Positions 5,504 through 34,672 of a stretch of 37,867 bases of DNA are shown here, piece by piece. The notes under the pieces are model-generated. The model ran no database searches, was not told where the DNA came from, and saw nothing but the letters and a program-made list of their open reading frames with translations. This DNA comes from a virus, in IMG/VR virus record IMGVR_UViG_3300025769_000320, positions 1 to 37,867 of that record; one strand, given 5' to 3'. The first letter of the stretch is position 1. Each line of letters starts with the position of its first letter. The position numbers and the translations under genes were made by a program.

Positions 5504-7403
5504 TCAATATCATTTTTTAGACCAAGACATAAAAGATATGTCTTGGGGAAACATAGATTCTGACTGGACTCCTCCTCAAACCTTTCCAGATTTATCTCAA
5601 TACGAAACAGTTTCAATAGACTTAGAAACAAAAGATACAAATCTATTAACACTTGGTCCTGGTTGGACAAGAAAAGATGGGTATGTGATAGGTGTTGCAG
5701 TTGCAGCGGGAGAAAGCTCTTGGTATTTTCCTGTTGCACACAAATCTGGTAACATGTCAAAAAACATAGTTTATAAATGGCTACAAAAATTATGTAATGA
5801 TGAAAAAATAACTAAAGTATTTCATAATGCTTTGTATGATTTAGGTTGGCTTAGAGCAGAAGGTATAGAGGTTAAAGGTAAAATAATAGATACCATGATT
5901 GCGGCACCTTTGCTGGATGAAAATAGAAAATGGTATAATCTTAATTCTCTTGCTCGTGACTATTTAGGTGAGTTTAAAGATGAAAAACTTTTAAAGTCAG
6001 CAGCGGATGAGTTTGGTGTTGATCCTAAATCTGGTATGTGGCAGTTGCCTCCTAGATATGTAGGTAAGTATGCCGAGCAAGATGCTTTGATAACTTTAAA
6101 ACTTTGGGATAATCTTAGAAAGAAAATAACTCAAGAAGAATGTTCAAGTATCTTTGAGTTAGAGATAGATCTACTACCTGTACTTTTTGAAATGAAAACA
6201 AAAGGTGTTCGTGTTGATGTAGAGAAAGCAAATAAAACTAAAAAAGAACTAACTAAACTTGAGAAATCACTTATAGATGAAATAGTCAAGGAAACTGGAG
6301 TCACGGTTGAACCGTGGGTCGCCACATCTGTAGCAAAAGTCTTTGACGCTGTAGGACTTCCTTATTCTCGCACAGAGAAGTCTGGGGCACCCATGTTTAC
6401 AAAACAATTTCTTGCGAATAATACTCATCCTATTGCACAAAAAATTATAAAAATTAGAGAAATAAACAAAGCTAATACAACTTTTGTTGATACAATCCTT
6501 GAGCATTCTCATAATGGTAGAATACATTGTGATTTTCACTCCTTACGATCAGATGGTGGTGGAACTGTTACTGGACGTTTTAGTTCAAGTAACCCCAATT
6601 TGCAACAGATTCCTGCACGAGATCCTGAGATTAAAAAATTAATTCGTGGTTTGTTTATCCCGGAGGAGGGCCACAAATGGGGTTCATTTGATTATGCATC
6701 ACAAGAACCAAGATGGCTAGTGCATTATTGTGCTACCTTGACGGGTGTTGATAAACATCCTCAAATAGATGACGTTGTTAAGATGTATCATGAAGGTAAT
6801 GCTGACTTTCATCAGATGGTTGCAGATATGGCCAACATACCAAGAAAGCAAGCTAAGACAGTTAATCTTGGTATTATGTATGGAATGGGTAAAGCAAAAC
6901 TTGCTAATGTTATGGATATAGAAATAGAAGAAGCAGAAAAATTATTGAATACATATAATCAGAAAGTACCTTTTTTGAGATCTTTATCCGAAAAAGCCAT
7001 GGATCGTGCAGCGAGCACTGGTGTTATACGAACTTGGTTAGGACGTAAATGTAGATTTGATATGTACGAGCCTGTGTCTTATGGTTTCAATAAAGCATTA
7101 CCAATGAAAGAAGCTATCAAAGAATATGGAGAGAAAGGTCGAGTGAGAAGAGCCTTTACATATAAGGCCTTGAATAGATTGATCCAAGGTTCAAGTGCTG
7201 ATCAAACAAAGAAAGCTATGGTCGAGTGCTATAAGGAAGGGCTGTGTCCTGTGTTGACCGTACATGACGAACTTTGTTTTAACATAGAAAACCAAAAACA
7301 AGCAGACAAAATTGTTGAGATAATGTCTACTTGTATTCCTGGTTTAAAAGTGCCTTTTGATGTAGATATGGCTCTGTGTGATAATTGGGGCGAAGTTGAT
7401 TAA
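5490..7403 (+). CDS. polA: DNA polymerase I (family A) with 3'-5' exonuclease
   Basis: A 637-aa replicative family-A polymerase lacking a 5'-3' exonuclease. The proofreading domain shows SIDLETKD (DxE, Exo I), VFHNALYDL (Exo II) and YAEQDALITL (Exo III, Y-x3-D). The polymerase domain shows FDYASQEPRW (motif A), RKQAKTVNLGIMYG (motif B) and TVHDELCF (motif C). At the position equivalent to E. coli Pol I Phe762 there is Leu (Leu460 here). I chose the ATG at 5490, overlapping the end of the previous gene with GGAG upstream, over an in-frame GTG at 5475. It is the last plus-strand gene; its stop interlocks with the convergent DUF1127 gene. Confidence 0.95.
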   Translation: MTNHDQYHFLDQDIKDMSWGNIDSDWTPPQTFPDLSQYETVSIDLETKDTNLLTLGPGWTRKDGYVIGVAVAAGESSWYFPVAHKSGNMSKNIVYKWLQKLCNDEKITKVFHNALYDLGWLRAEGIEVKGKIIDTMIAAPLLDENRKWYNLNSLARDYLGEFKDEKLLKSAADEFGVDPKSGMWQLPPRYVGKYAEQDALITLKLWDNLRKKITQEECSSIFELEIDLLPVLFEMKTKGVRVDVEKANKTKKELTKLEKSLIDEIVKETGVTVEPWVATSVAKVFDAVGLPYSRTEKSGAPMFTKQFLANNTHPIAQKIIKIREINKANTTFVDTILEHSHNGRIHCDFHSLRSDGGGTVTGRFSSSNPNLQQIPARDPEIKKLIRGLFIPEEGHKWGSFDYASQEPRWLVHYCATLTGVDKHPQIDDVVKMYHEGNADFHQMVADMANIPRKQAKTVNLGIMYGMGKAKLANVMDIEIEEAEKLLNTYNQKVPFLRSLSEKAMDRAASTGVIRTWLGRKCRFDMYEPVSYGFNKALPMKEAIKEYGEKGRVRRAFTYKALNRLIQGSSADQTKKAMVECYKEGLCPVLTVHDELCFNIENQKQADKIVEIMSTCIPGLKVPFDVDMALCDNWGEVD

Positions 7404-7597
7404 AGACCAGATTTTACAAACAAATCTAATTCAGACATTTGATCTTCTTCTGGTTTTTCATTTTTAAAAACATCATAGGCATGAGACGTAATATTTGATC
7501 TGTCTATACCTATGTCTTTTAATGTTGCATCGTCCAAGCTATTTAATGCACTTACAGTTCTCGCTATTTTGAATTTATAAAACCAGTTTGATAACAT
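7400..7597 (-). CDS. DUF1127 family small protein
   Basis: A 65-aa protein with the DUF1127 (YjiS-like) signature in its first 40 residues: an aromatic/basic helix (WFYKFKIARTVSALNSL) followed by DDATLKDIGIDRSNI. DUF1127 proteins are common in alpha- and gammaproteobacteria, and some have been linked to RNA binding and phosphate/carbon or stress physiology. The acidic tail (EKPEEDQMSELDLF) is extra. It has a strong AAGGAGA ribosome site. Its TAA shares the TTAA at 7400-7403 with the polymerase stop. It is separated from the other late genes by a 197-base gap, so it may have its own transcript. A host-takeover role is inference. Confidence 0.8.
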   Translation of the reverse strand: MLSNWFYKFKIARTVSALNSLDDATLKDIGIDRSNITSHAYDVFKNEKPEEDQMSELDLFVKSGL

Positions 7598-7794
7598 TTA
7601 TTTCTCCTTTTCTATTATTAGTTATACATTTTTTCTAAAAGATAGAGAACCGAGCAAAAGTGAAAGACATTCTTTCCAAAAAAGCATAAATTAACGCTAG
7701 GATATTAAATTTAAATGTAGAAAAACAAAGCCTATTCTAGCTAGGAATCATACCAAGGACTCTTGTTTCGTTGATTCTGAGGCATCTGAGAGCC
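7598..7794. other. 197-base intergenic gap between DUF1127 and DUF1289 genes
   Basis: This is the longest untranslated stretch in the window. Next to the DUF1127 gene there is a TATAAC box on the minus strand (about 26 bases before its start) without a convincing -35. A small GC-poor hairpin with a T-rich tail lies at 7720-7745 (minus), and an AGGC/GCCT hairpin followed by T6 lies at about 7779-7803 (plus). I see no tRNA, integrase site or long repeat. It may hold the end signals of both convergent transcripts and a promoter for DUF1127. Confidence 0.4.
7720..7745 (-). terminator. possible weak terminator of the late operon
   Basis: On the minus strand, CCTA and TAGG pair across a 7-base loop, followed by CTTTGTTTTTC. 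The stem is only 4 bp, so this is weak. Its place, 50-75 bases after the DUF1289 stop codon, is where the late transcript would be expected to end. Confidence 0.25.
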
Positions 7795-7962
7795 TTATTT
7801 TTTGAGGGATTGCATAATTTCGGTGCGTTTTTGGCCAGATAAACGTGACCAGGTAGAAATTTGCTCTAAGGTTCGAAAACAGCCAATACAAATATTATTT
7901 TCTATTTTGCACACGTTTAGGCACGGGCTTACAATAGGCTGTGATCTTTCTTTTCTCGTCAT
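7795..7962 (-). CDS. DUF1289 family small cysteine protein
   Basis: A 55-aa gene that is short and overlapped, so easily missed. It reads from ATG at 7960-7962 to TAA at 7795-7797. Four cysteines form the DUF1289 pattern: SPCLNVC (Cys14, Cys18), then ICIGCFRTLEQI (Cys25, Cys28), then W38 and SGQKRTEIM, matching the family's C-x3-C-x6-C-x2-C ... RTxxEI..W....xxxR layout. The cysteines probably bind metal (Zn or Fe-S). Its first 68 bases overlap, in another frame, the end of the preceding 65-aa gene. DUF1289 is common in proteobacteria; its function in phage is unknown. Confidence 0.85.
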   Translation of the reverse strand: MTRKERSQPIVSPCLNVCKIENNICIGCFRTLEQISTWSRLSGQKRTEIMQSLKK

Positions 7963-8092
7963 TGGGGTATGGAATCTCTGGTTGTTCGTTTAATCTTCTG
8001 GCAAAATACAGGCAGTCGTTGACATTTTCAAATGTCTGGTCTTGATTAATAATTAACGTGCCTATCATATAGACTAAAGCAAACTCTATCAT
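7895..8092 (-). CDS. small membrane-anchored or secreted protein, unknown
   Basis: A 65-aa protein with a short hydrophobic N-terminus (residues 1-15), which could be a signal anchor. It is followed by a soluble part with two cysteines (NDCLYFARRL and AYCKPVPK) that could form a periplasmic disulfide. Its start overlaps the end of the 213-aa gene (ATGA) and its last 68 bases are shared out of frame with the DUF1289 gene. Similar small proteins occur near the lysis/late end of marine phage genomes (from memory). Function unknown. Confidence 0.65.
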   Translation of the reverse strand: MIEFALVYMIGTLIINQDQTFENVNDCLYFARRLNEQPEIPYPNDEKRKITAYCKPVPKRVQNRK

Positions 8093-8730
8093 TCATCTTT
8101 GGTTTTCCAAAAGTATTCGTCTGTGTCACCAAGTCTGAATCTCTGACCATTCTCGACTTGATACTCTATTGTACTCACTTTGAAGTCTGGTTGCAATGGC
8201 TCTTGAGGTGTTAATGAATTATCATAAACTCTCATTCTGTTGTTTGGGTATAAACAGAATTGTCCGTTCTTTAGTTCAAGTAAATTAAATGATTTGTGTT
8301 CGGCTGGTGTTTCACTTGTAGCGTAATCAACTACGTCTGGATCTTGATGATAGTTGTCAATCGTACAAATATAAGAACCCGTCAATGGACCGTGATCCCT
8401 GGTCAGTATTTCAAAATCCATTGACCCTATGAATTGTTTGTGAATAGACACCACGCCATAATCCATACAATTCCAAAACTGAAGATTGTAAAGATCCAAA
8501 TCTGGGGTCGGGGTATCGGGGCGTGATACGAATGCAGAAATAGGTAGTTTGTCATACAAAGCACCATAATCAGGAAGGTAAGTTTCAAAGTAAAATGCTC
8601 TACCAGGAATAGATTTTGCAGTAACCCAGACACCTTTTACAAATTCCCCGTGTCCATCTTGATGATCCCTTAAATATTCTCGTCTAACCCAAACGTCTAC
8701 AGAAGGTAAATTGCAAATCAATGTTGCCAT
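8089..8730 (-). CDS. conserved late phage protein, unknown function
   Basis: A 213-aa, beta-rich protein without membrane segments or a recognisable catalytic motif. It begins MATLICNLPSVDVWVRREYL and contains many aromatic and Asp/Asn residues. Proteins with this opening recur in marine podophages (from memory), placed downstream of the endolysin as here. Its start overlaps the stop of the HNH-like gene and its end overlaps the next small gene, so it is part of the late operon. Function unknown. Confidence 0.7.
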   Translation of the reverse strand: MATLICNLPSVDVWVRREYLRDHQDGHGEFVKGVWVTAKSIPGRAFYFETYLPDYGALYDKLPISAFVSRPDTPTPDLDLYNLQFWNCMDYGVVSIHKQFIGSMDFEILTRDHGPLTGSYICTIDNYHQDPDVVDYATSETPAEHKSFNLLELKNGQFCLYPNNRMRVYDNSLTPQEPLQPDFKVSTIEYQVENGQRFRLGDTDEYFWKTKDE

Positions 8731-20914: not shown

Positions 20915-21538
20915 TTATTTTGCGAAGGCATAATACCAACCAGTAGCAATATACTTGGTATTCGATATAGGTGGGTTACCCCTATGGGTATGCGTAAATC
21001 CAGCAGGAAATAATAACATACTACCTTTTTTGGGTTTAACTCTCATACTATGGTACAAAAATTCTGTTTCTCCGCCTTCTTCAACATCGTTTAAGAATAT
21101 ACTCCAAACTAAAAATCTTTCTTTATTTTCTTGACTACCATTTTCGTAATGCCAATCATGAAAGCCACCACTGGGTGTTGTCTCTTGAAATTTAAATTCT
21201 GTAAAATCAATAAAAGAATGTTCTACAGTTGAAATCAAACCCTCTGCCATTGTGTTGGTATATACTTTTAAACCCTCTTTTAAACAATTAGTAAATATGT
21301 CACCAACTTTACCATCAAATTCTATCTTTTCTGCAACTTGTATACCTGTCAAATGTGTTAAATAAAGTGTTCCTGGAATTTGTATGTCTTGCCTACCTTT
21401 TCTGTTGTCTATGGTTGTATATACTTTATAATGTTTTTCTGGATCATTCATTTGTTCGACTATAAAATCACAAATTTGTGTACTGAGCATATTATCTATC
21501 GTCATAACAAAGTTTTTTACATGAACATTTTTATTCAT
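20915..21538 (-). CDS. 2OG-Fe(II) oxygenase-like protein, HxE variant (cassette gene 6)
   Basis: A 207-aa prolyl-4-hydroxylase-fold protein. Metal site: HDWHYEN (His130, Glu132, an H-x-E variant of the usual H-x-D) with distal His183 or His185 in FPAGFTHTHRG. Between them lie SIFLNDVEEGGETEF and VKPKKGSMLLFPAG, the classic jelly-roll strands; Lys195 or a nearby residue may hold 2-oxoglutarate. The WHxEN/HTHRG form is a subfamily seen in marine phages and bacteria (from memory). Last gene of the six-gene cassette; its start overlaps the QueC-like stop (ATGA). Substrate unknown. Confidence 0.85.
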   Translation of the reverse strand: MNKNVHVKNFVMTIDNMLSTQICDFIVEQMNDPEKHYKVYTTIDNRKGRQDIQIPGTLYLTHLTGIQVAEKIEFDGKVGDIFTNCLKEGLKVYTNTMAEGLISTVEHSFIDFTEFKFQETTPSGGFHDWHYENGSQENKERFLVWSIFLNDVEEGGETEFLYHSMRVKPKKGSMLLFPAGFTHTHRGNPPISNTKYIATGWYYAFAK

Positions 21539-22236
21539 AGTGGTATACCTTTATCATCATATATATTCATTTTTCTGAGGTTGTTGCATTTAGGACATTC
21601 ATTACAATGCCATTCAGTTGAAAAGCAAGTTCTAACCATTTTTTTCAAATCTATTTCTAATGTATCCCAAGCCTCTTTTTTATTTTTAAATCTATCTATA
21701 CCTTCACCTTTATATACAGTAGCTGGAGTACAAAGGTCTATATCAGAGTTTTGTAACCTTGAACCCACATCAATATAAAATTGCATTTTTTCCTTTGTGT
21801 AGTCACCAGGAAGACAATGATGACCATAAACTTCTGTATCATTTTCGTGTTTTACGTATTTTTGTCTTAATATTTCATCTGTATAACTATAGTGACCCAT
21901 CCACATACGATCAATGTTATAATTATTGCAAAACATTGCTCCATAAAAAACACACCATTGATTATCTGTGCCAAAATATGTGCTTTCATTTTCTTCATCT
22001 AATGTTGTCATCACAGTAGCTTGTGAATATTCAAAATCACCATACTTTTCTTTCATGTATTGAAGAATATTATTTGCTGCGATGTTTTGTAAACGCACTC
22101 TACCATGCATCCTTTCTGCCCAACCTAATTCTATATACAAAACTCTTACTTTTTTCTTCTCTTGTAAAAAGTGCTTGAGTAATATTGTACTATCTATTCC
22201 ACCAGAAAATAAAAGTAATTCAGTCGCCTCATTCAT
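21535..22236 (-). CDS. QueC-like PP-loop ATPase (cassette gene 5)
   Basis: A 233-aa PP-loop (N-type ATP pyrophosphatase) protein. The loop is LLFSGGIDST (SGGxDS at 11-16). The C-terminal zinc motif is C-x6-C-x2-C-x2-C (Cys204, 211, 214, 217), followed by RKMN, matching QueC, which turns 7-carboxy-7-deazaguanine into preQ0 (C-x8-C-x2-C-x2-C in E. coli). TPATVYKG, then KKEAWDTL, also matches the QueC end. The middle diverges: the usual DYPDCR-like segment is replaced by GTDNQWCVFYGAMFCNN, so the substrate may differ. No QueD, QueE, FolE or DpdA partner is seen. It sits between oxygenase genes with an ATGA overlap downstream and a 4-base gap upstream. Confidence 0.82.
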   Translation of the reverse strand: MNEATELLLFSGGIDSTILLKHFLQEKKKVRVLYIELGWAERMHGRVRLQNIAANNILQYMKEKYGDFEYSQATVMTTLDEENESTYFGTDNQWCVFYGAMFCNNYNIDRMWMGHYSYTDEILRQKYVKHENDTEVYGHHCLPGDYTKEKMQFYIDVGSRLQNSDIDLCTPATVYKGEGIDRFKNKKEAWDTLEIDLKKMVRTCFSTEWHCNECPKCNNLRKMNIYDDKGIPL

Positions 22237-22240
22237 TGAA

Positions 22241-22888
22241 CTACCTACTACGATCTAGAAAAGGATAATTTTCAGACATCATTGTTGGTTGTGGTTTTGG
22301 TCTACTAAATAAATAATTTGGATGGATTCCACGACCAAAGTAATTAAAGTTTATTGTCATTCTATAGGGTACATTTGTGGGTGATGAACTTGAATGAGGA
22401 GTAGCAGAATTAAATATTAATATCCTATTTCCTTTTGATTCTATTTCTGTTCCATCTGCTAAATAAGTAGGTGCATTGCAATCAGAAACAAAAAACAAAG
22501 CACCAACATTATACATATCATAATCAATATGTGGTGCATGAATATAATGTTCTTTTGCACCTATGTAGAAATTACATTTAACTCTCATTAAAGCATCGAT
22601 GTATAGTTTAGAAGTTATGTTTGTGAAAGGCTCTATATCAGTTTCAGAAGTCCATTGCTCTCTTGCAGGTCTATTATTGCTGAATATAGAATTAACCATG
22701 TAGAAATCATCGTTAGATACATCATTGTAATTTATTTGTGGAGCAATATGCCAACCCATGTTAGATTCCATGTGTTCTTTTAGAGAACCAAATTCATGAT
22801 AAGGCAAAAAATCATCATAAACAGCATAAAAAAAATCACCATAAGACTTTTCTTTTTTGCACATTTCTAAAAATTGTTTTTTATTCAT
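22241..22888 (-). CDS. 2OG-Fe(II) oxygenase-like protein (cassette gene 4)
   Basis: A 215-aa protein with a double-stranded beta-helix signature. HAPHIDYD gives His120 and Asp122. About 43 residues later SATPHSSSSP gives distal His165, and PYRMTINFNYF gives Arg176 for 2-oxoglutarate binding. The intervening strands are VGALFFVSDCNAP and GNRILIFNS. The N-terminal half (AVYDDFLPYHEF) is helical, as in other phage members. It is four bases from the QueC-like start and six bases after the preceding oxygenase. All catalytic residues are present, so it is probably active. Substrate unknown. Confidence 0.8.
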   Translation of the reverse strand: MNKKQFLEMCKKEKSYGDFFYAVYDDFLPYHEFGSLKEHMESNMGWHIAPQINYNDVSNDDFYMVNSIFSNNRPAREQWTSETDIEPFTNITSKLYIDALMRVKCNFYIGAKEHYIHAPHIDYDMYNVGALFFVSDCNAPTYLADGTEIESKGNRILIFNSATPHSSSSPTNVPYRMTINFNYFGRGIHPNYLFSRPKPQPTMMSENYPFLDRSR

Positions 22889-22894
22889 TTATAC

Positions 22895-23458
22895 TTACCT
22901 AAAATTATATCCACGCACCCAACATACTAAACTATATCTTGTACCTTTAGTCACTGGAACAACCCCATGCCTCATGTAAGATGGGAAAAATATAGCTGTT
23001 CCTTGACTTAAAGAGTCTTCGACAATAAATTTCTCTTTATCATCTGGGAACTCAAACGTGCCACCTTCATAATATTCTGGTGCCGTTAATTGAATAGAAA
23101 CAGAAAGTTTTCTTACTAGTTCATTTGGTGAAATATTGTCATAAACACCATCTTCGTGTGGTTCATAAAAACCTTGATTTTTTTCATCATACTTTGTTAT
23201 TTGAAAATGTTCAGGTTCTAATAATTCAAAATTGTAAAATTCATTGTTAACTTTATTTATTAACTGAAGTATAGGAGTATATATATCTAAATACTTTATA
23301 CTCCCAACAAGAAAATTTGTTTCACTTTTTCTTACAGTAGGTTGGTTTCGACCTCCATCAGTTAGTGCTGATGTAAATCCTGGTTTAGCTACTTCTATTA
23401 TCTTATTACATAAATCTGAAGAAATAGCATTTTTAGCTATAATAATATTTCTTTTCAT
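22895..23458 (-). CDS. prolyl 4-hydroxylase-like 2OG-Fe(II) oxygenase (cassette gene 3)
   Basis: A 187-aa protein and the most canonical member of the set. FYEPHEDG supplies His101 and Asp103. YYEGGTFEFPDD is the conserved GG-x-x-x-F strand. GTAIFFPSYMRHGVVPVTKG supplies distal His164, and TRYSLVCWVRG supplies Arg174. This is the P4Hc domain order seen in phage PKHD-type hydroxylases. Its start ATG overlaps the stop of the DUF6445-like gene (ATGA). Typical reactions are hydroxylation of Pro, Lys or Arg in proteins; the actual target is unknown. Confidence 0.9.
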   Translation of the reverse strand: MKRNIIIAKNAISSDLCNKIIEVAKPGFTSALTDGGRNQPTVRKSETNFLVGSIKYLDIYTPILQLINKVNNEFYNFELLEPEHFQITKYDEKNQGFYEPHEDGVYDNISPNELVRKLSVSIQLTAPEYYEGGTFEFPDDKEKFIVEDSLSQGTAIFFPSYMRHGVVPVTKGTRYSLVCWVRGYNFR

Positions 23459-24132
23459 GTTCTTCTCATTTCGGGTACTGGGTAATACGGAGCATTTATG
23501 TCAAAAAAACTAATAAATGTAAGTCTTTCCTCTTCTGGTTTTAGATTGTAAATTGCTCCATGTAAATTTGAACCATCAAAACCTATTAATTTGTTGTAAG
23601 ATGAATTAAATAAACAATCTAATTTAAACTGATTTAAATGATTGTTAAGATATTTATAATAATCTTCCATGTTTAAATCAGGGCTTTTGCTATAATATAA
23701 ACTTTTTAACGTAGGATCGATTGCAGCAAAGTTGAAACCACTTTTTTGAGAATATAGAGCGGTTCCACAAAAATCGTTTTCTGAAAGATATATTATAGCT
23801 GTAAATTTTGTCTCATGATCACCATGTATCCACCCTTTTCCTAGGTGTTCTTTATTTAAAACATGAGCTTCTACATCTTCATATCTTATTTTTTGAAAAG
23901 AAGAAGTTGCTTGATATGTCAAAGTTTGAAATTGATTAAAATCAGGATATAAAAGTCTTAAAATTTTGCAATTAATTTTTTGAACAAGATCAACACTATG
24001 ATCATCTTTTGCCTCTGCTCTTAGTCCTGGATAATTTCCAAGTGGTTTTTCATATGTTAATGATTCAGCAAATTGTTTAATATAATTAGGTTTTTCAAAA
24101 AAATTGTTCACTTGTAAACTTGGGTAATTCAT
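23455..24132 (-). CDS. DUF6445-like, 2OG-oxygenase-fold protein (cassette gene 2)
   Basis: A 225-aa protein. GNYPGLRAEA near residue 32-41 and WIHGDHETKFTAIIYLSEN (His103, Asp105) match a family I recall as DUF6445, which belongs to the oxygenase-like jelly-roll group. CGTALYS follows, then GFDGSNLHGAIYN with distal His191 and RLTFISFF with Arg203. The full H-x-D...H...R set is therefore present. Local base composition is very low in GC: two sampled 60-base lines, at 23581 and 23641, are about 18% and 22% G+C. It overlaps both neighbours by ATGA. Confidence 0.75.
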   Translation of the reverse strand: MNYPSLQVNNFFEKPNYIKQFAESLTYEKPLGNYPGLRAEAKDDHSVDLVQKINCKILRLLYPDFNQFQTLTYQATSSFQKIRYEDVEAHVLNKEHLGKGWIHGDHETKFTAIIYLSENDFCGTALYSQKSGFNFAAIDPTLKSLYYSKSPDLNMEDYYKYLNNHLNQFKLDCLFNSSYNKLIGFDGSNLHGAIYNLKPEEERLTFISFFDINAPYYPVPEMRRT

Positions 24133-24668
24133 TCTGATACCATCATATTTTCATATAAATTTGGTCTTTTATCGTATTGAAATTCTGGATAAAACTGACC
24201 ATCTTTTTCTATGTAATGTAAAAAAACTTGCCTATGCCAATCGTATTGTAACTCATGTCTCCAGTGCTCTTGTTCACATCCTTTGTAAATCACACCTTCT
24301 CCAATATTTAATTTAAAAACATTATCATCTACATTTATTGTCCACATATCTTCTTTATGTGATGCGTCTATACATAAAGTCACACTTACTTCACAAGAGG
24401 GTCTGTCTGTATGTGGAGGACAATCTTGTGTTTTAAAGTAAGTTCTCCAAAAAGAATAAGTTGGAATCAATTCTTTACCATACGCTTCTTCTACTTTTGG
24501 TTTAATAAAGTGTAGCAAATTTTCAAAAACTGGATCAGCATAAACACTTTTTGTTCCAGTAAACATTTGTTGTGAAGAGGGATTAATTAATTTTTCAATA
24601 TATGCCATATGATCAGACAAACACTTTGCATGATCTTTTTCTAAAAGTTTGATTTTTGTATTAATCAT
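24129..24668 (-). CDS. 2OG-Fe(II) oxygenase-fold protein, first gene of the cassette
   Basis: A 179-aa protein. CPPHTDRPSCEVSVTLCID gives His86 and Asp88 in the H-x-D position, followed by a jelly-roll strand. GEGVIYKGCEQEHWRHE gives candidate distal His135 or His138, and HRQVFLHYI gives Arg146. FWRTYFKT before the motif is a strand-helix typical of these folds. This is the most divergent member, so fold is likely but activity less sure. A sigma70-like promoter lies 22-50 bases before the ATG, with AAGG about ten bases upstream, making it the first gene of the operon. Confidence 0.72.
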   Translation of the reverse strand: MINTKIKLLEKDHAKCLSDHMAYIEKLINPSSQQMFTGTKSVYADPVFENLLHFIKPKVEEAYGKELIPTYSFWRTYFKTQDCPPHTDRPSCEVSVTLCIDASHKEDMWTINVDDNVFKLNIGEGVIYKGCEQEHWRHELQYDWHRQVFLHYIEKDGQFYPEFQYDKRPNLYENMMVSE

Positions 24669-24721: not shown

Positions 24722-25102
24722 TTAAGACCAAGGAAAAGAAGCTGTAAAGTTCCCTTCAGAATCAGTTGAGCCTTTAGCTACAGCCCCATTAACTTTTTCT
24801 TGAAAATCTATGTTGTTTTCAATGCCAGTTTTTATATCAGCTAATTGAGTAGATCCAACTCTTCCTTCAATCCAGCTTGCTACATTCGCTTCTGTGACAG
24901 AACCATATGCCGTAAAATTACTATCTATATTATCTACATTCATATCTAAATCAAAACTTGCTTCAGATGTTATACTGTTAATAGTTTCACTTGTTCCAGT
25001 TAAAGTTGCTTCTACCCTAAGAATTGCATCACTATAAGTAGTTCCATTTTTTGTAATATCTTTAGTATGTAAAGTGTTTATTGTCCAAGCGTATTTTGCC
25101 AT
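24722..25102 (-). CDS. small conserved tail-region protein (DUF7936-like)
   Basis: A 126-aa protein beginning MAKYAWTINTLHTKDI, with a beta-rich first half (AILRVEATLTGTSETINSIT) and a helical part around WIEGRVGSTQLADIKTGIEN. It ends AKGSTDSEGNFTASFPWS. The same build (a Y-x-W-x-I start and an F-P-W end) is seen in small proteins beside fibre genes in cyanophages and pelagiphages, which I recall as DUF7936. It follows the Gly-rich adhesin directly. A fibre-assembly or minor tail role is inference. Confidence 0.65.
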   Translation of the reverse strand: MAKYAWTINTLHTKDITKNGTTYSDAILRVEATLTGTSETINSITSEASFDLDMNVDNIDSNFTAYGSVTEANVASWIEGRVGSTQLADIKTGIENNIDFQEKVNGAVAKGSTDSEGNFTASFPWS

Positions 25103-26388
25103 TATTCTGTGCCTCCTGCGACTGTACCATTATTTGTAAAACTTACGTTTGATATACCTTCGATGTAGTTTCCTGCACCTCCAGCTGAACCTCCAGATCC
25201 TCCAGCAGATCCTGGTGTTGTTGAATTTGCTCCAGTTGCTCCAGTAGATCCAGCACTTCCAGCCTGACCATATCCACCTCCTGCACCTCCAGCACCTCCA
25301 GTTCCACCATCTCCAGCAGGAGTTGGTGATCCTCCACTTCCAGAACTGCCTGATCCTGCAGAAGGATTATTAAAACCTCTACCTACTCCTCCTGCACCTC
25401 CAGCACCTCCAGCACCTCCTGATGCTTGAGTTTGTTGTGATTGTGGATATGTCCTATAAATTTCCCACGATGTTCTTGTACCTACATTAAATTGATTTTC
25501 GCCTTGAGAGATTTGTACGGGACCAGTACCTCTTGGATTTCCTCTGTTATAAGTGTACTGACCTTGAGTAAATGAAGTTCTATTGAGAGGACCAACGGGA
25601 TATGAGGCTGCTCCAGGAGCAGGACCATATTGTATTGCTGAATTTTGTGAGTAAGTGCCTTGTCCATATGGAATGCCATAAGGAGCTTTGTATGAAGGGT
25701 TATTATTTGCAACTGATGCCCATTTATAATAAGCATTTCCAGGACCTCCAAAAAAAGGACCTTGTGTGGCATTGGTTTGAGATTGTTGACTTAGGTTACC
25801 ACCAACACCTCCGCCTCCACCACCAGAGCCACCTCCACCTCCAGCTAATATACTTCCATTGTTAATTAAGGTTACTGCTACTGATGCTTTAAAAGCGTCT
25901 CCACCTGCAGATCCTGCAGAACCTGCTCCAGAATTTGCTGAACCACCAGATCCTGCCGCTCCTCCTGCACCTATTATACTACCATTATTGGTGATAGTGA
26001 TAGTTCCATCACCTCCAGAATCTGCTTCTAAAGCATATTCAGAAGTGTTGTTTGTGCCTAAAGTTACTGAAGAAGGTATTACAACCTTTTTAGGATAGTC
26101 TACTCCATAATCAGTAGATCCAAATACATCAGATAAATTTTGATCTGTAGCTCCAGAGGAATAGGTAAAAGTAAAACCTTTACCTTGATCATAAAAATCA
26201 CTCACATCTAAAGCACCACTTTCAGGCACATTCGCGGCATCATTAACGGCATTATTTGTGGGGTGTTTAGCTCTTATGTTAGAGCCACCTCTATAAAGAT
26301 CACCAAGACTAACGGCACTTGAGCCACCAACAAATTCGGTTCTTAATGCAGAAAATGATAAAGATTGTCCAGACGATGGAATTGCCAT
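25102..26388 (-). CDS. glycine-rich tail fibre adhesin
   Basis: A 428-aa protein. The N-terminal 60 residues (MAIPSSGQSLSFSALRTEF, then SLGDLYRGG) match the attachment part of many marine-phage adhesins. A beta segment (PSSVTLGTNNTSEYALEADS) leads to two glycine-rich blocks, at about 140-200 and 325-415, made of GGAGGAGG/GSGGSG repeats like the polyglycine-helix adhesins of gp38-like fibre tips. Between them (about 205-325) lies a Tyr/Pro/Gln/Asn-rich segment (YGIPYGQGTYSQNS, GQYTYNRGNPRGTG) that looks like a variable receptor-binding loop region. It is one base from the 126-aa gene. Probably host-recognition protein. Confidence 0.75.
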   Translation of the reverse strand: MAIPSSGQSLSFSALRTEFVGGSSAVSLGDLYRGGSNIRAKHPTNNAVNDAANVPESGALDVSDFYDQGKGFTFTYSSGATDQNLSDVFGSTDYGVDYPKKVVIPSSVTLGTNNTSEYALEADSGGDGTITITNNGSIIGAGGAAGSGGSANSGAGSAGSAGGDAFKASVAVTLINNGSILAGGGGGSGGGGGGVGGNLSQQSQTNATQGPFFGGPGNAYYKWASVANNNPSYKAPYGIPYGQGTYSQNSAIQYGPAPGAASYPVGPLNRTSFTQGQYTYNRGNPRGTGPVQISQGENQFNVGTRTSWEIYRTYPQSQQTQASGGAGGAGGAGGVGRGFNNPSAGSGSSGSGGSPTPAGDGGTGGAGGAGGGYGQAGSAGSTGATGANSTTPGSAGGSGGSAGGAGNYIEGISNVSFTNNGTVAGGTE

Positions 26389-27429
26389 TTAACTACCTTT
26401 TAATTCATTAACTTCTTGTTTTAATTTTTCAATTTGCAATTTAGATGTGATTACATCATCACTAAGCTCTTTGACTGCTTCTATTAAAACAGATGTTAAT
26501 TTACCATAGTCTACAGATTTTGTCTGCATCTCATCCTCTGCTGTTAACACAACTTCTGGTACAATAGTTTCCATATCTTGTGCTAGAACACCAACTTGAG
26601 TTTTAGCATTTTCAACATCGTTTCTTTTGTAGTAAACACCTTGCATACTCATAACTTTTTCTAAGGCATTTGATATTGGCTCTATGTCTGTCTTTAATCT
26701 TTTATCAGAAAAAGCAGTTACATCATTATTAAATGTTGCGGCTCCAGCAGCAGACATATCAAGGGTCAAGGCTGTAATTGCTGAACCGCCATCGTTACCT
26801 TGGAACTTCATATCTTTATCAGAGACTATTGATTTAATAACAAAATCCGTTGAAGAATTAAAGATACGTCCAAATTCAGTGCCAGCGTCTTTAAACATAA
26901 TAGCCGTGCCGTCAGCATCAAGAATAATATCGCCAGCAGAGTCAAATGTCATATTACCAGAGTTTGTCTTCACTGTGCTAACATTTACAGAGCCACCAGA
27001 TAAATCTAAATCTACGAAGGCATCCACAACAGCCGCACCAGAACCTGCACCATCAAGATAAACTGCTTTAGCATCTCCAGGTCCAATAGTAATATTAGCT
27101 CCACTACCTTGACTAATTACAATATTTTGTGATCCACTTGTTGCATTTTCAATAATGTGAAATCTTTTCATTGTGTTCGGGCCGATAGTAATCGTACATG
27201 CAGAATCTAATGTTCCAGTATATTTCAAGAACAATGCTCTTCCAGCATCTGACGATCCATCTGCTATTGTTGTTGTGTGAGTATCTGCATTTGTTGTTAT
27301 GGCTTCTGTTCCAAAACCTAATGCTTCACCTATTAATTCTAGATTTGTGTTTGTTGATGTACCCCAAGTTCCAGACTCGTCACCCGTGGCTATTTCTTTT
27401 AATCTAAGATTATTTACATATGTTGCCAT
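26389..27429 (-). CDS. tail fibre/spike protein with C-terminal S74 chaperone domain
   Basis: A 346-aa protein. The N-terminus (MATYVNNLRLKEIATGDESG, then WGTSTNTNLELIGEALGFG) is the common attachment segment of marine fibre proteins. The middle is beta-rich with SGNMTFDSAGDIILDAD-type strands. From about residue 235 follows a peptidase S74 intramolecular chaperone: FSDKRLKTDIEPI carries the Ser241-Lys246 self-cleavage pair, then VGVLAQDMETIVPEVV and VDYGKLTSVLIEAVKEL with a terminal coiled coil. I chose ATG at 27429 (TAATG overlap with the previous stop) rather than a 7-codon-longer frame. It should trimerise and then release its chaperone. Confidence 0.88.
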   Translation of the reverse strand: MATYVNNLRLKEIATGDESGTWGTSTNTNLELIGEALGFGTEAITTNADTHTTTIADGSSDAGRALFLKYTGTLDSACTITIGPNTMKRFHIIENATSGSQNIVISQGSGANITIGPGDAKAVYLDGAGSGAAVVDAFVDLDLSGGSVNVSTVKTNSGNMTFDSAGDIILDADGTAIMFKDAGTEFGRIFNSSTDFVIKSIVSDKDMKFQGNDGGSAITALTLDMSAAGAATFNNDVTAFSDKRLKTDIEPISNALEKVMSMQGVYYKRNDVENAKTQVGVLAQDMETIVPEVVLTAEDEMQTKSVDYGKLTSVLIEAVKELSDDVITSKLQIEKLKQEVNELKGS

Positions 27430-28691
27430 TATGCCGCCTTTTCTACCCAATTTGCCAGTTGATCTGGCTCAATTAAACTATAAACTTGTTCCTCACCAGT
27501 TGATCCAGTGACACTTAATCCTGTTAAAGATAACACAGAACCACCTTGTATGGCAAGAGTGCCTGCTAAAATTGATAAGCCTGCTAGTGTTACTGCAATA
27601 TCTGCACTACCAATGGCGGTTTCATTGCCAACTGCTGTTGTTCCAACAACTGTTGTAACTGGTGCTCCAGTTGTGGTTTGTACTGTATAAACAATAGGAG
27701 TATTCGCTGTCCAACCCATCGCTGAATGATTAGAACAATAATAATATAAAGTTGGAGCATCTGTTGCCACAGTTATTTCTGTGTAAGCTCCAGCACTTCC
27801 AGGTGTTCCGCTAGTTGTTACTCCAGTTGTATATTGAGTTCCACCACCATGTGTCCCATTTGCAGTTGTGCTAAATCTTAGTGGATGACCAGAATTACTA
27901 CTATCACTTTGATCGAATCGATAAGTGTTACCTTCAAATAATTCTAAAGTAACATCTGCCGTAGCTGTTGATCCATCTATTGCATATTTGTTTGTAGATC
28001 CTACATTGTAGTAAGGATGATTTGCTGGATTGCCACCTACTACAGTTACAGTTTTTGTTATTGTTGTAGCAGAATATCCACTTATTAATGTAGAAGCAGA
28101 AACACCTGTAGGTGAAATGAGTGCCGTACCAGTAACTGCCTCATCACCAATGTTTACTGTACCAGTAAGTCCAGTTTCAACAACTCTTGCACCTGCACCT
28201 GCGAGTGCGTCACCGATTGCCATTGTCCCTGCAACACCAGTAACACTAAAAGTACATGTTCCACTAACTGTTGGATTATTGGATTGACCAGTTGCTTCTA
28301 AACCAGTCATAGGAAGAGTTTGTCCTACATCAGCAAAAACACCACCACCCCATATATGTGCACCCCAAGCGTCACTACCCCAACCAGATAAAAATTGAGA
28401 GGTGGCTTCTAAACCAGTAACACCAAAAGAGATAGGTATTTTAGGTAATACAGTGCCAACGGAAGCAGTTGCAGATATACCAGTAGGTGTAATGATGTGA
28501 ATACTACTAGCGTTTACTGTTCCTACAGAACCAGTTGCTTCTAAACCAGTCTCTATTACTAGAGACCCAGCAGTAGTTCCTTCATCACCAACGGCTGTTG
28601 TACCAGCAACACCAGTAACAGCAAAAGAAGTGTTACCAATACCACCCCAGCCAACAGCACCCCAGGTGCCTTGTCCCCAACCGTTAGCCAT
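27429..28691 (-). CDS. repeat-rich tail protein with cupredoxin-like motif
   Basis: A 420-aa protein. Residues 1-200 and the end contain many short beta repeats built on (V/E/P)TG(L/V/I)xxT or ETGLEATG, with Trp/Gly stretches (GWGQGTWGAVGWGG and SGWGSDAWGAHIWGGG). In the middle (about 205-335) is a different domain: YAIDGSTATADVTLELFEGN, then SGHPLRF and PTLYYYCSNHSAMGW. His269, Cys319, His322 and Met325 have the order of a cupredoxin copper site. It is followed by the S74 fibre gene. Probably a fibre or baseplate component. Confidence 0.7.
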   Translation of the reverse strand: MANGWGQGTWGAVGWGGIGNTSFAVTGVAGTTAVGDEGTTAGSLVIETGLEATGSVGTVNASSIHIITPTGISATASVGTVLPKIPISFGVTGLEATSQFLSGWGSDAWGAHIWGGGVFADVGQTLPMTGLEATGQSNNPTVSGTCTFSVTGVAGTMAIGDALAGAGARVVETGLTGTVNIGDEAVTGTALISPTGVSASTLISGYSATTITKTVTVVGGNPANHPYYNVGSTNKYAIDGSTATADVTLELFEGNTYRFDQSDSSNSGHPLRFSTTANGTHGGGTQYTTGVTTSGTPGSAGAYTEITVATDAPTLYYYCSNHSAMGWTANTPIVYTVQTTTGAPVTTVVGTTAVGNETAIGSADIAVTLAGLSILAGTLAIQGGSVLSLTGLSVTGSTGEEQVYSLIEPDQLANWVEKAA

Positions 28692-29159: not shown

Positions 29160-29447
29160 TTAGAGTCTCCTTATATATTCGGCTGTTTCCTTTTGACCAC
29201 TCGATCTTAAGGCTTGGATTATAGTACCACGCTCTTCCTTTCTTGCCAAGACTAGGTAGTGATACAATACTTTTTTAAGATGTTCTCTAAATTGATTTGC
29301 TTGTTGTCTTATATGTGGAGGTGCTTGATCTGATATACTGACTATTTTATCAACTGCTAAATCTGCTATTTGCTCGTTGTTTAAACCACCTTTGTCTGAA
29401 GTCATTACATTTACTTTCCCCGCTTGTGATACTCCTACGTTAAACAT
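29160..29447 (-). CDS. small helical conserved phage protein
   Basis: A 95-aa protein. MFNVGVSQAGKVNVMTSDKGG is followed by helices (LNNEQIADLAVDKIVSIS, and IRQQANQFREHLKKVLYHYL with ARKEERGTIIQAL). The C-terminus RSSGQKETAEYIRRL is strongly helical. Homologues with the same G-x-T-x-x-x-x-L...GH pattern occur in cyanophage and pelagiphage structural regions (from memory). It may be a head-tail or scaffold-like factor, but function is unknown. Its start overlaps the end of the 239-aa gene by eight bases. Confidence 0.65.
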   Translation of the reverse strand: MFNVGVSQAGKVNVMTSDKGGLNNEQIADLAVDKIVSISDQAPPHIRQQANQFREHLKKVLYHYLVLARKEERGTIIQALRSSGQKETAEYIRRL

Positions 29448-30159
29448 TTTTCTTCTCCTCGTATGTTACTCCTGGTATGTCCTCTCTACCAATTATATTA
29501 GGTGTCGCATCTAAAGGCTCTGGAGGATCTAGTTTAGATTTTTTAGTAATCAACATTTCACCTTGTGTAGTTGTAGAAATTAGTGGGTCATCCAGCCTAT
29601 GATAGCCATATAGTTTTTGATCCTCTGAAACATTAGTGTCTAACAAAGAAGAACTATTTGCTATGTGAAGTTTTATTCCTTTAGATACTGCTATAGCTAA
29701 CCAAAACTCACAACAAGCTCTACCTGCCTCTGCAAAATTAACTGCTTTGTGTGTGAAATCTATACCATACAAATGTAGATCAGAAACTTCTTCTGCTATT
29801 GCATAGGCAAGTGCATAAGCAACAGTGTTGTTTAAATATGCATATTTAGTTTTCTGCAACACATCTTGTAGTGGATATTCTACAACATCTGGACATCTTT
29901 CATCTAACGTACAAGAAAAAATAGGAACATTTATTTTTGTTTTTAATCTTTCTGCCATTATATTTGTTTGTGTTCCAGCGTTAGGTGTATCTAAAAACCT
30001 TGACGGTGGATCCATCATGAAACATTTATCATGATATATAACTCCAGACATAGCGTTTATTGCCCAAACTTCATCGAACTTTTCGCTTCTAATTTTAGCT
30101 AAAATATATTCTGAAAAACTATTGCCTAATCCAACAATAGCTATGCTTTTATTTTTCAT
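29440..30159 (-). CDS. Rossmann-like protein in the tail operon (MptE/DUF115-like?)
   Basis: A 239-aa protein starting MKNKSIAIVGLGNSFSEYIL, with a Gly-rich nucleotide-binding-type turn (VGLGNS) after the first strand. Further elements are EVWAINAMSG, a DP (MMDPPSRF), and HLYGIDFTHKAVNFAEAGRA, resembling the core of DUF115/6-hydroxymethylpterin-pyrophosphokinase-like proteins. Its C-terminal 70 residues look disordered. No sugar or pterin substrate can be read from it. A promoter-like element lies directly upstream and no SD is visible, so it may be read from a leaderless mRNA. Function unknown. Confidence 0.6.
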   Translation of the reverse strand: MKNKSIAIVGLGNSFSEYILAKIRSEKFDEVWAINAMSGVIYHDKCFMMDPPSRFLDTPNAGTQTNIMAERLKTKINVPIFSCTLDERCPDVVEYPLQDVLQKTKYAYLNNTVAYALAYAIAEEVSDLHLYGIDFTHKAVNFAEAGRACCEFWLAIAVSKGIKLHIANSSSLLDTNVSEDQKLYGYHRLDDPLISTTTQGEMLITKKSKLDPPEPLDATPNIIGREDIPGVTYEEKKNV

Positions 30160-33986: not shown

Positions 33987-34613
33987 TTAAGCTTCGTAAC
34001 CCATTAATTCAATGAATAACTTACCAGCAGTGTAATCTGCATCTGTTGCATCACCAGTTGTTAAGTATAAGAATTGATCTGCGGCTGGAACAGCAGTGAA
34101 GTAAACTTTGCTTCCCAATGTTGCATCACCTGCGTTAACCAATAATGTTTCAGTTAAATCACCAATAGCACCATCTTCAACACCAGTACCTTCTGTTGCA
34201 GAGTGTACGTTAATGTCAGGATCACCACCAGCTGGTGCTTCAAAACATTCCATGCTACCAGTTAAGATAGTTCCGTTTTGTGCAGCAGTTATCTGACCAA
34301 TATGACAAACCAATGATGTTCCGTTAACACCAATGATGTCACCAGATCCTGTTGATCTTAAACCTGTTAGGTCAATTAAAATTTTTGTTGTGATAATTCC
34401 ACCAACTCTTTGAACGGCAGTTCTGTATATAGTTCCAGAACCAGTTGTAATACCTGTTCCTGCTTCTACAGAAAGTGTATTAGCATCAAAGGATGCCACG
34501 CCAGTTGAGTTAATGCTTGAGAGGGTTGTTATAGCACCTGTAGTGCTGTTTTTAGAAATGGATGTAAATCCACCTTCTGATCGGACTGGACCCGAAAAAG
34601 TTGTGTTAGCCAT
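33987..34613 (-). CDS. head decoration-like protein, 208 aa
   Basis: It begins MANTTFSGPVRSEGGFTSIS, an opening found in marine-phage head proteins encoded beside the major capsid gene. The rest is beta-rich (YRTAVQRVGGIITTKILIDL, then KVYFTAVPAADQFLYLTTGD, ending KLFIELMGYEA). The start is ATG at 34613 with AAGGAG six to eight bases before it; a 14-codon longer frame exists but would include the UTR hairpin and lacks an SD. It has its own promoter-like element after the capsid terminator, which suggests high and separate expression. Confidence 0.7.
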   Translation of the reverse strand: MANTTFSGPVRSEGGFTSISKNSTTGAITTLSSINSTGVASFDANTLSVEAGTGITTGSGTIYRTAVQRVGGIITTKILIDLTGLRSTGSGDIIGVNGTSLVCHIGQITAAQNGTILTGSMECFEAPAGGDPDINVHSATEGTGVEDGAIGDLTETLLVNAGDATLGSKVYFTAVPAADQFLYLTTGDATDADYTAGKLFIELMGYEA

Positions 34614-34639
34614 ATCAATCTCCTTGTCTTGGCAAATGT

Positions 34640-34658
34640 CAGTCGCACCATGCAACTG
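34640..34658 (-). promoter_or_regulatory. 5'-leader stem-loop before the 208-aa head gene
   Basis: On the minus strand an 8-bp stem pairs CAGTTGCA (34651-34658) with TGCGACTG (34640-34647) around the triloop TGG, with one T-G wobble. It lies 13-20 bases upstream of the SD and has no T tract, so it looks like a leader or mRNA-protecting hairpin rather than a terminator. Confidence 0.6.
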
Positions 34659-34672
34659 TCAAGGTTTAGTTT

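What the first reader, a model, noticed from the sequence alone, without database searches (positions are those of the whole stretch)
20915..24668. Six-gene cassette of five 2OG-Fe(II)-oxygenase-fold genes plus a QueC-like PP-loop ATPase, inserted in the tail operon
Seen: five consecutive minus-strand genes, split by one PP-loop gene, each with an HxD (or HxE) ... H site of the 2OG/Fe(II) jelly-roll fold. The genes are 24129-24668 (H86/D88), 23455-24132 (H103/D105/H191), 22895-23458 (H101/D103/H164), 22241-22888 (H120/D122/H165) and 20915-21538 (H130/E132/H183). Junctions are ATGA overlaps or gaps of 4-6 bases. Established: phages often carry one or two such oxygenases; they hydroxylate protein side chains or nucleobases. 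Inference: five different paralogues in one phage of about 40 kb, coupled to a QueC-like enzyme and set between adhesin and nozzle genes, suggest a dedicated multi-step modification of virion fibres, a host surface target or a nucleobase. I know of no described system of this composition.
Basis: partly seen in the sequence, partly recalled or inferred. Interest (0 to 1): 0.88.

Follow-up and report, generated by a model that had tools for sequence, protein, structure and literature searches.

The report
Adhesin-linked phage oxygenase cassette
A small marine phage carries, right behind its predicted receptor-binding adhesin gene, a row of five unrelated iron/2-oxoglutarate oxygenases plus a QueC-like ATP-dependent ligase; this set is swapped between phages together with the adhesin, so it probably decorates a virion or host-surface target rather than serving general metabolism.

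Summary
All five oxygenase genes keep an HX[DE]...H metal site across homologues, all six genes are under purifying selection (dN/dS 0.03-0.31), and the five oxygenases are five different families. OX1, which has no Pfam hit, models as a jelly roll. The set occurs in 42 non-redundant viral contigs in a fixed order: glycine-rich adhesin - DUF7936 - OX1 - OX3 - OX4, plus interchangeable accessories (OX2, further oxygenases, PP-loop, PLP lyase). In one phage backbone, 25 of 25 slots with this adhesin carry OX1+OX3+OX4, against 1 of 44 with other adhesins; 8 tree-independent switches agree (p about 0.008). The PP-loop protein folds like QueC/Cap9/QatC and keeps the ATP loop and zinc cysteines but lacks the QueC substrate motifs. 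It stands beside oxygenases in all 31 readable contigs, even without this adhesin. OX1 is the family labelled 'ferrochelatase' in PHROGs and recent papers; that label looks wrong. Oxygenase clusters near tail genes already exist in annotated marine phages, so 'no described system' is only partly true. Best reading: stepwise modification of the adhesin or tail fibre (0.45). Host-surface and amino-acid chemistry remain open.

The parts
24129..24668 (-). OX1, 179 aa, Fe(II) oxygenase fold (PHROG phrog_2954, mislabelled 'ferrochelatase'); H86, D88, H135
23455..24132 (-). OX2, 225 aa, DUF6445 / phrog_1644 family with H103, D105, H191, R203; accessory, present in 5 of 25 complete GlyR slots
22895..23458 (-). 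OX3, 187 aa, 2OG-FeII_Oxy_3 (PF13640, phrog_61); H101, D103, H164, R174
22241..22888 (-). OX4, 215 aa, phrog_274 (mislabelled 'DNA endonuclease V'); H120, D122, H165, R176
21535..22236 (-). PPL, 233 aa, divergent QueC-superfamily PP-loop ATPase; SGGIDST loop and zinc cysteines C204, C211, C214, C217
20915..21538 (-). OX5, 207 aa, 2OG-FeII_Oxy_3 (PF13640, phrog_61), HxE variant; H130, E132, H183, K195; accessory
24722..25102 (-). DUF7936 protein (126 aa), always between adhesin and cassette
25102..26388 (-). GlyR, 428 aa glycine-rich predicted adhesin with a hypervariable middle (about residues 201-322) flanked by glycine-rich stretches; the partner with which the cassette is inherited
26389..27450 (-). 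tail-fibre protein with Peptidase_S74 chaperone domain; upstream border of the exchangeable slot

Best explanation
The cassette is a late-expressed protein-modification module for the phage's own receptor-binding apparatus. In the infected cell the oxygenases, using host 2-oxoglutarate, O2 and Fe(II), hydroxylate or further oxidise side chains of the neighbouring glycine-rich adhesin (or of DUF7936 or the S74 fibre) in several steps. The QueC-like PP-loop ATPase then activates a carboxylate by adenylation and joins it to an amine or ammonia, in the manner of QueC or Cap9. In some relatives a cystathionine-lyase-like PLP enzyme, found only with the PP-loop gene, may supply ammonia or a sulfur or amino-acid unit. 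Different adhesins need different enzyme sets, so adhesin and enzymes are exchanged as one block. SHOWN: gene content, metal and zinc sites, folds of OX1 and PPL (predicted models), fixed order behind the adhesin, co-inheritance with the adhesin, obligate PPL-oxygenase linkage. INFERRED: that the proteins are active, that the substrate is a protein of the tail, the order of steps, and the role of the PLP enzyme.
For: 25 of 25 complete GlyR slots carry OX1+OX3+OX4 versus 1 of 44 non-GlyR slots on the same backbone. On a backbone tree GlyR switches at least 10 times, and in 8 supported independent pairs the trio follows it in 7.8 on average and never opposes it (p about 0.008). Slots with large 700-1200 aa spikes have no detected oxygenase (0 of 11). 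Accessories turn over in GlyR slots (PPL 11, OX5 8, OX2 5 of 25) while the trio never does. Distances of D7936, OX1, OX3, OX4 and PPL correlate with each other (0.28-0.83) but not with backbone genes g28 and tRBP. GlyR residues 101-200 and the C-terminus track the oxygenases, whereas its first 100 residues track the upstream S74 fibre. The block sits behind GlyR even where the flanking virion genes are unrelated (L003/L004, L010). Isolated phages HTVC033P, HTVC023P, Mosig, S-CAM8 and S-SSM5 have glycine-rich proteins shortly upstream of an OX3-OX1 pair. OX1's best Foldseek matches are protein prolyl hydroxylases, including one solved with its protein substrate; PPL's best Foldseek match is Cap9, which conjugates a carboxylate to a protein N-terminus (PMC13279940).
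Against: Adhesin and cassette are contiguous, so block exchange by recombination could keep them together without a functional tie. PPL and oxygenases also occur together in phages with a tail-collar or other fibre instead of GlyR, sometimes on the opposite strand from the virion genes and next to an exported amino-acid-binding protein. No GlyR or DUF7936 residue segregates clearly with PPL. The hypervariable tip of GlyR does not track OX1 or OX3. In other cyanophages many oxygenase genes lie far from glycine-rich genes. No activity or modified peptide is known.
Confidence: 0.45

Rival explanations
1. Small-molecule chemistry: the enzymes act on free amino acids or another metabolite (hydroxylation, amidation or ligation, lyase steps), as auxiliary metabolic genes that happen to be housed in the adhesin slot.
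For: A family-3 solute-binding protein of the amino-acid type lies beside PPL and oxygenases in six non-redundant contigs (L308, L310, L311, L312, L313, L318). A cystathionine-beta-lyase-like PLP enzyme occurs in five cassettes, all with PPL. Published readings of phage 2OG oxygenases favour host metabolism (PMC9602691, PMC11561400).
Against: Does not predict that the trio follows one adhesin type on a constant backbone, nor its absence with spike-type adhesins.
Confidence: 0.2
2. Host-surface modification: the enzymes alter the receptor (surface glycan, lipid or protein) during infection, so that released phage is not trapped or secondary phages are excluded; co-inheritance with the adhesin reflects receptor specificity.
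For: Same co-inheritance evidence. PP-loop amidotransferases of the QueC superfamily act in O-antigen synthesis (PMC13329287, cluster 5). The phage-borne exported solute-binding protein is an envelope component.
Against: The window's cassette is co-directional with the virion genes and shares their operon, which suggests late expression; no glycosyltransferase or membrane protein lies in this window's cassette.
Confidence: 0.17
3. Hitchhiking cargo: the slot between fibre and nozzle genes is a recombination hot spot that holds unrelated genes; linkage to GlyR has no functional meaning.
For: The slot is exchanged as a block and holds varied content; contiguous genes travel together anyway.
Against: Within GlyR slots accessories come and go but OX1, OX3 and OX4 are never lost (25 of 25); OX4 lies nearer the downstream backbone gene than the adhesin, yet its distances track the adhesin C-terminus (0.47) and not that gene (0.11); PPL is never found without oxygenases in readable contigs.
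Confidence: 0.12
4. Nucleobase modification of phage DNA or tRNA through a 7-deazaguanine or oxidised-base pathway.
For: QueC superfamily fold and zinc site in PPL; 2OG oxygenases can act on bases.
Against: QueC substrate motifs are absent (against PMC13329287). No queD, queE, folE or transglycosylase family was found among the window genes scanned. The cassette varies while the replication and virion backbone stays constant and is tied to the adhesin type.
Confidence: 0.06

Closest known systems
Multi-oxygenase clusters of marine phages (HTVC023P-type pelagiphages, PMC9599517; S-CREM1, PMC9964418; S-SCSM1, PMC9602691)
   Same: Several 2OG-Fe(II) oxygenase genes, among them OX1- and OX3-type, near tail-fibre genes
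   Different: No PP-loop gene and no DUF7936 homologue found in those records by tblastn; no link to a particular adhesin had been reported; OX1 homologues are called ferrochelatase there
QueC family (PF06508), with Cap9 of type IV CBASS and QatC of qatABCD
   Same: PP-loop ATPase fold, SGGxDS loop, four-cysteine zinc motif
   Different: Lacks YxQxHxxE and VPxRN, no clear YPDC; altered cysteine spacing; oxygenase and tail neighbours instead of queD/queE, CD-NTase or QatB
YcfA-YcfC (6-thioguanine synthesis), a PP-loop enzyme with a PLP partner (the pairing is recalled, not checked here)
   Same: YcfA is among PPL's best fold matches; some cassettes add a PLP lyase
   Different: No invariant cysteine outside the zinc site (C103 and C169 are lost in divergent members); PLP is absent from the window and most PPL loci
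Bacterial and viral prolyl-4-hydroxylases (4j25, 4iw3, 5c5t)
   Same: Fold of OX1 (TM about 0.6) and the HX[DE]...H site
   Different: About 12% identity; the residue holding 2-oxoglutarate in OX1 is not established (R146 is not conserved)
Glycine-rich gp38-type phage adhesins (from memory)
   Same: Glycine-rich stretches around hypervariable segments in GlyR
   Different: No sequence test of gp38 homology was run beyond weak PHROG tail-fibre hits

Membership tests
2OG/Fe(II) oxygenase superfamily (OX1-OX5) | HX[DE]...H metal triad | tested here: met
   Invariant in alignments of all five
2OG/Fe(II) oxygenase superfamily (OX1-OX5) | Double-stranded beta-helix fold | tested here: met
   OX1 modelled; OX3 and OX5 above the Pfam cut-off, OX2 in DUF6445, OX4 sub-threshold only; OX2 and OX4 not modelled
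2OG/Fe(II) oxygenase superfamily (OX1-OX5) | Basic residue anchoring 2-oxoglutarate about 10 residues after the distal His | tested here: inconclusive
   R174 in OX3, R176 in OX4, K195 in OX5 invariant, R203 in OX2 in 3 sequences; in OX1 R146 is not conserved in the wider family
2OG/Fe(II) oxygenase superfamily (OX1-OX5) | 2OG-dependent oxidation activity | not testable with these tools
   Needs enzymology
Canonical QueC | SGGxDS pyrophosphate loop | tested here: met
   Invariant in 21 homologues
Canonical QueC | C(x)8CxxCxxC zinc motif | tested here: met
   C204-x6-C211-x2-C214-x2-C217, 21 of 21, with shorter first spacing
Canonical QueC | Substrate motifs YxQxHxxE, VPxRN, YPDC (PMC13329287) | tested here: not met
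   Residues at the first two read M/L37-G-W39 and YFxxDxQW with D91 invariant; the YPDC site is ambiguous; alignment beyond residue 42 is by eye, hhalign aligned only the N-terminus
Canonical QueC | queD/queE neighbours | tested here: not met
   None among the window genes scanned or the neighbours read
Cap9/QatC-type protein-modifying QueC | Fold similarity | tested here: met
   Cap9 best Foldseek match; VIA Z 12.3 for Cap9 and QatC, 13.0 for QueC, argininosuccinate synthase similar
Cap9/QatC-type protein-modifying QueC | Partner substrate with N-terminal glycine | tested here: not met
   GlyR and DUF7936 begin M-A or M-T; other acceptors not excluded
Ferrochelatase (label of phrog_2954 = OX1) | Match to the ferrochelatase family | tested here: not met
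   No Pfam ferrochelatase match for OX1 or seven phage relatives, six of them annotated 'ferrochelatase'; H, D, H invariant

The most novel reading that the evidence does not exclude
A phage-encoded, combinatorial post-translational modification system in which a QueC-like ligase and interchangeable sets of 2OG oxygenases build a chemical group on the receptor-binding adhesin, so that host range is set by the adhesin sequence together with its chemistry.
Probability: 0.3. Interest if true: 0.9.

Novelty: new variant of a known kind. Interest (0 to 1): 0.62.

Why it matters
2OG oxygenases are abundant in marine phages, and papers assign them to host metabolism. Finding that one conserved set is inherited with the adhesin gives a concrete place to look for the substrate. 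The QueC-like partner extends a superfamily that was recently shown to modify proteins in anti-phage defence. The 'ferrochelatase' marker (phrog_2954), used as a haem-related auxiliary gene in ecological studies (PMC9599517, PMC11561400), is on this evidence another oxygenase, which changes how those results read.

Tried and rejected
A bacterial home for PPL: two genome-contig scans gave no full-length relative. PPL in phage records: none by tblastn with two queries. A residue in GlyR or DUF7936 that segregates with PPL, OX2 or OX5: nothing convincing. Thiolation by PPL: the only candidate cysteines outside the zinc site are not invariant. A general rule that marine-phage oxygenases lie beside glycine-rich genes: not supported across 11 regions (15 of 58 oxygenase genes within 3 kb, 37 of 290 other genes; three cyanophage regions had oxygenases and no glycine-rich gene at all). 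GlyR presence against any oxygenase (rather than the trio) on the tree: weaker, p about 0.06; a g28 tree had too few supported pairs. Tandem duplication as origin of the five: rejected.
Full report
OBSERVATION. The window is an IMG/VR virus record of 37,867 bases. I name them in transcription order OX1 (24129-24668), OX2 (23455-24132), OX3 (22895-23458), OX4 (22241-22888), PPL (21535-22236) and OX5 (20915-21538). Upstream lie DUF7936 (24722-25102), a glycine-rich protein GlyR (25102-26388) and an S74 fibre; downstream lies a virion protein of phrog_3287.

ARE THEY OXYGENASES? OX3 and OX5 pass the Pfam PF13640 cut-off, OX2 passes DUF6445, OX4 is a weak PF13640 hit, and OX1 has no 2OG hit. The metal residues HX[DE]...H are invariant in homologues of all five. 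OX1 was modelled from 13 sequences (pLDDT 82). It matches prolyl-4-hydroxylases in Foldseek and 2OG-oxygenase-fold proteins with Z 12-14.6 in VIA-align. OX2 and OX4 were not modelled. dN/dS against three relatives is 0.03-0.31 for all six genes; among the five oxygenases only OX3 and OX5 show any mutual BLAST match of length, 24% at E 0.06. They are therefore five old families, not recent duplicates.

OX1 IS NOT A FERROCHELATASE. OX1 belongs to phrog_2954, named ferrochelatase. Seven relatives from isolated phages, six of them annotated ferrochelatase, have no Pfam ferrochelatase match and share the invariant H86, D88 and H135. PMC9599517 reports that whenever these pelagiphages encode a 'ferrochelatase' a 2OG oxygenase is adjacent, and PMC11561400 uses phrog2954 as a seasonal auxiliary gene. 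On this evidence both count an oxygenase. phrog_274, named DNA endonuclease V, has members with 2OG hits and the same metal motif too.

THE PP-LOOP PROTEIN. PPL passes the Pfam QueC cut-off narrowly (24.2 against 22 bits). Its model (pLDDT 79, residues 119-142 poor) matches Cap9, YcfA and QueC best in Foldseek, and QueC (Z 13.0), Cap9 (12.3) and QatC (12.3) in VIA-align, with argininosuccinate synthases scoring as high (13.8). In 21 homologues the SGGxDST loop and four cysteines (204, 211, 214, 217) are invariant. By the catalytic signature in PMC13329287 the YxQxHxxE and VPxRN motifs are absent and YPDC is doubtful. Alignment there is by eye, because hhalign against E. coli QueC covers only the first 37 columns. 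PPL is thus a QueC-superfamily enzyme with a different substrate site, as QatC is.

DISTRIBUTION. Scans with PPL, DUF7936 and OX1 gave 42 non-redundant contigs with DUF7936. Where the contig is long enough the order is GlyR - DUF7936 - OX1 - (OX2) - OX3 - OX4, followed by a changing set: PPL, OX5, OX6, further 2OG-type genes, a phrog_7084 protein, and in five cases a cystathionine-beta-lyase-like PLP enzyme, always with PPL. In L003/L004 and L010 the flanking virion genes are unrelated to the window's while the block keeps 56-93% identity. The block therefore moves between phage backbones.

NATURAL EXPERIMENT. Backbone genes on both sides gave phages with the same frame and other adhesins. Of 69 readable slots, 25 hold GlyR and all 25 have OX1+OX3+OX4; of 44 others one does (L277). 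Spike-type slots have no detected oxygenase (0 of 11). On a tree of the downstream backbone gene GlyR changes at least 10 times; in 8 supported independent pairs the trio goes the same way in 7.8 on average, never the other way, p about 0.008. The weaker trait 'any oxygenase' gives p about 0.06, because other adhesins carry other oxygenase sets. Protein distances of DUF7936, OX1, OX3, OX4 and PPL correlate with each other and not with g28 or the downstream gene. Within GlyR, residues 101-200 and the C-terminus follow the oxygenases, and the first 100 residues follow the upstream fibre, which suggests that exchange occurs inside the GlyR N-terminal region.

BEYOND GlyR. A deeper PPL profile found further contigs, L308-L318, on a more distant backbone. 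PPL has oxygenases within three genes in 31 of 32 non-redundant contigs; the exception, L316, is a 719-base fragment of the same contig as L057, which carries OX1, OX3 and OX4. In the distant group the fibre is a tail-collar or another protein and not GlyR. In L308-L311 the enzymes lie on the strand opposite to the virion genes, and in six non-redundant contigs an exported amino-acid-binding protein (SBP_bac_3) is among them. The PPL-oxygenase partnership is thus independent of GlyR. This is the main reason the confidence in adhesin modification is below one half.

KNOWN CONTEXT. Isolated marine phages have related clusters: HTVC033P, HTVC023P, Mosig, S-CAM8 and S-SSM5 carry a glycine-rich gene shortly upstream of an OX3-OX1 pair, and S-CREM1 has nine oxygenase-type genes in a row. 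P-SSM7 and others have oxygenases far from any glycine-rich gene, so there is no universal rule. In marine metaviromes, Fe(II)-dependent oxygenase genes were already listed among the genes of variable host-recognition islands (PMC3909814).

MECHANISM. The best-supported reading is modification of the tail adhesin or its partners by several oxygenations and an ATP-driven ligation. Shown here: architecture, active-site motifs, predicted folds, co-inheritance, obligate PPL-oxygenase linkage. Inferred: activity, substrate, order. Rivals are small-molecule chemistry, host-surface modification, hitchhiking and base modification; the last is least likely because the cassette varies with the adhesin while the rest of the backbone does not.

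VERDICT. Novelty: a new variant of a known kind, in that oxygenase clusters by tail genes are known in marine phages, while the QueC-like partner, the adhesin linkage and the relabelling of 'ferrochelatase' were not found in the papers read.

Noticed in passing
L178:8211-9719, also L195 and L199: Relatives of the backbone carry, in the same slot, a 237-aa glycine-rich protein starting MGTGEL directly followed by a different PP-loop-like protein (263 aa, SGGINST, no zinc cysteines, no Pfam hit): an independent pairing of a glycine-rich protein with a PP-loop protein.
   Followed up: partly
L308, L310, L311, L312, L313, L318: Phage-borne exported amino-acid-type solute-binding protein (SBP_bac_3) beside PPL and oxygenases.
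   Followed up: partly
window 29440-30159: 239-aa protein in the tail operon, 82-100% identical in relatives, no Pfam or PHROG match; L270, L280 and L287 have an OX5-like oxygenase inserted just behind it.
   Followed up: no
window 34611-34664, minus strand: Rfam Mu-gpT-DE RNA (67 bits) overlapping the start of the gene behind the presumed major capsid gene.
   Followed up: no
window 8089-8730, minus strand: 213-aa protein matching phrog_3704 'ferredoxin' (E 1e-109) with no Pfam hit; the label may be another PHROG misname.
   Followed up: no
window 2167-3705: Primase of the AEP-TOTE type (PF22548), known from conflict systems, in the replication operon.
   Followed up: no
L110, L112, L113 (around 7001-7393): Contigs with distant OX1 and OX2 homologues next to three divergently transcribed genes of about 500 aa each; contents not identified.
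   Followed up: no
window 7404-8088: About 685 bases without an ORF of 70 aa or more, where transcription and GC skew switch; likely promoter or origin region.
   Followed up: no
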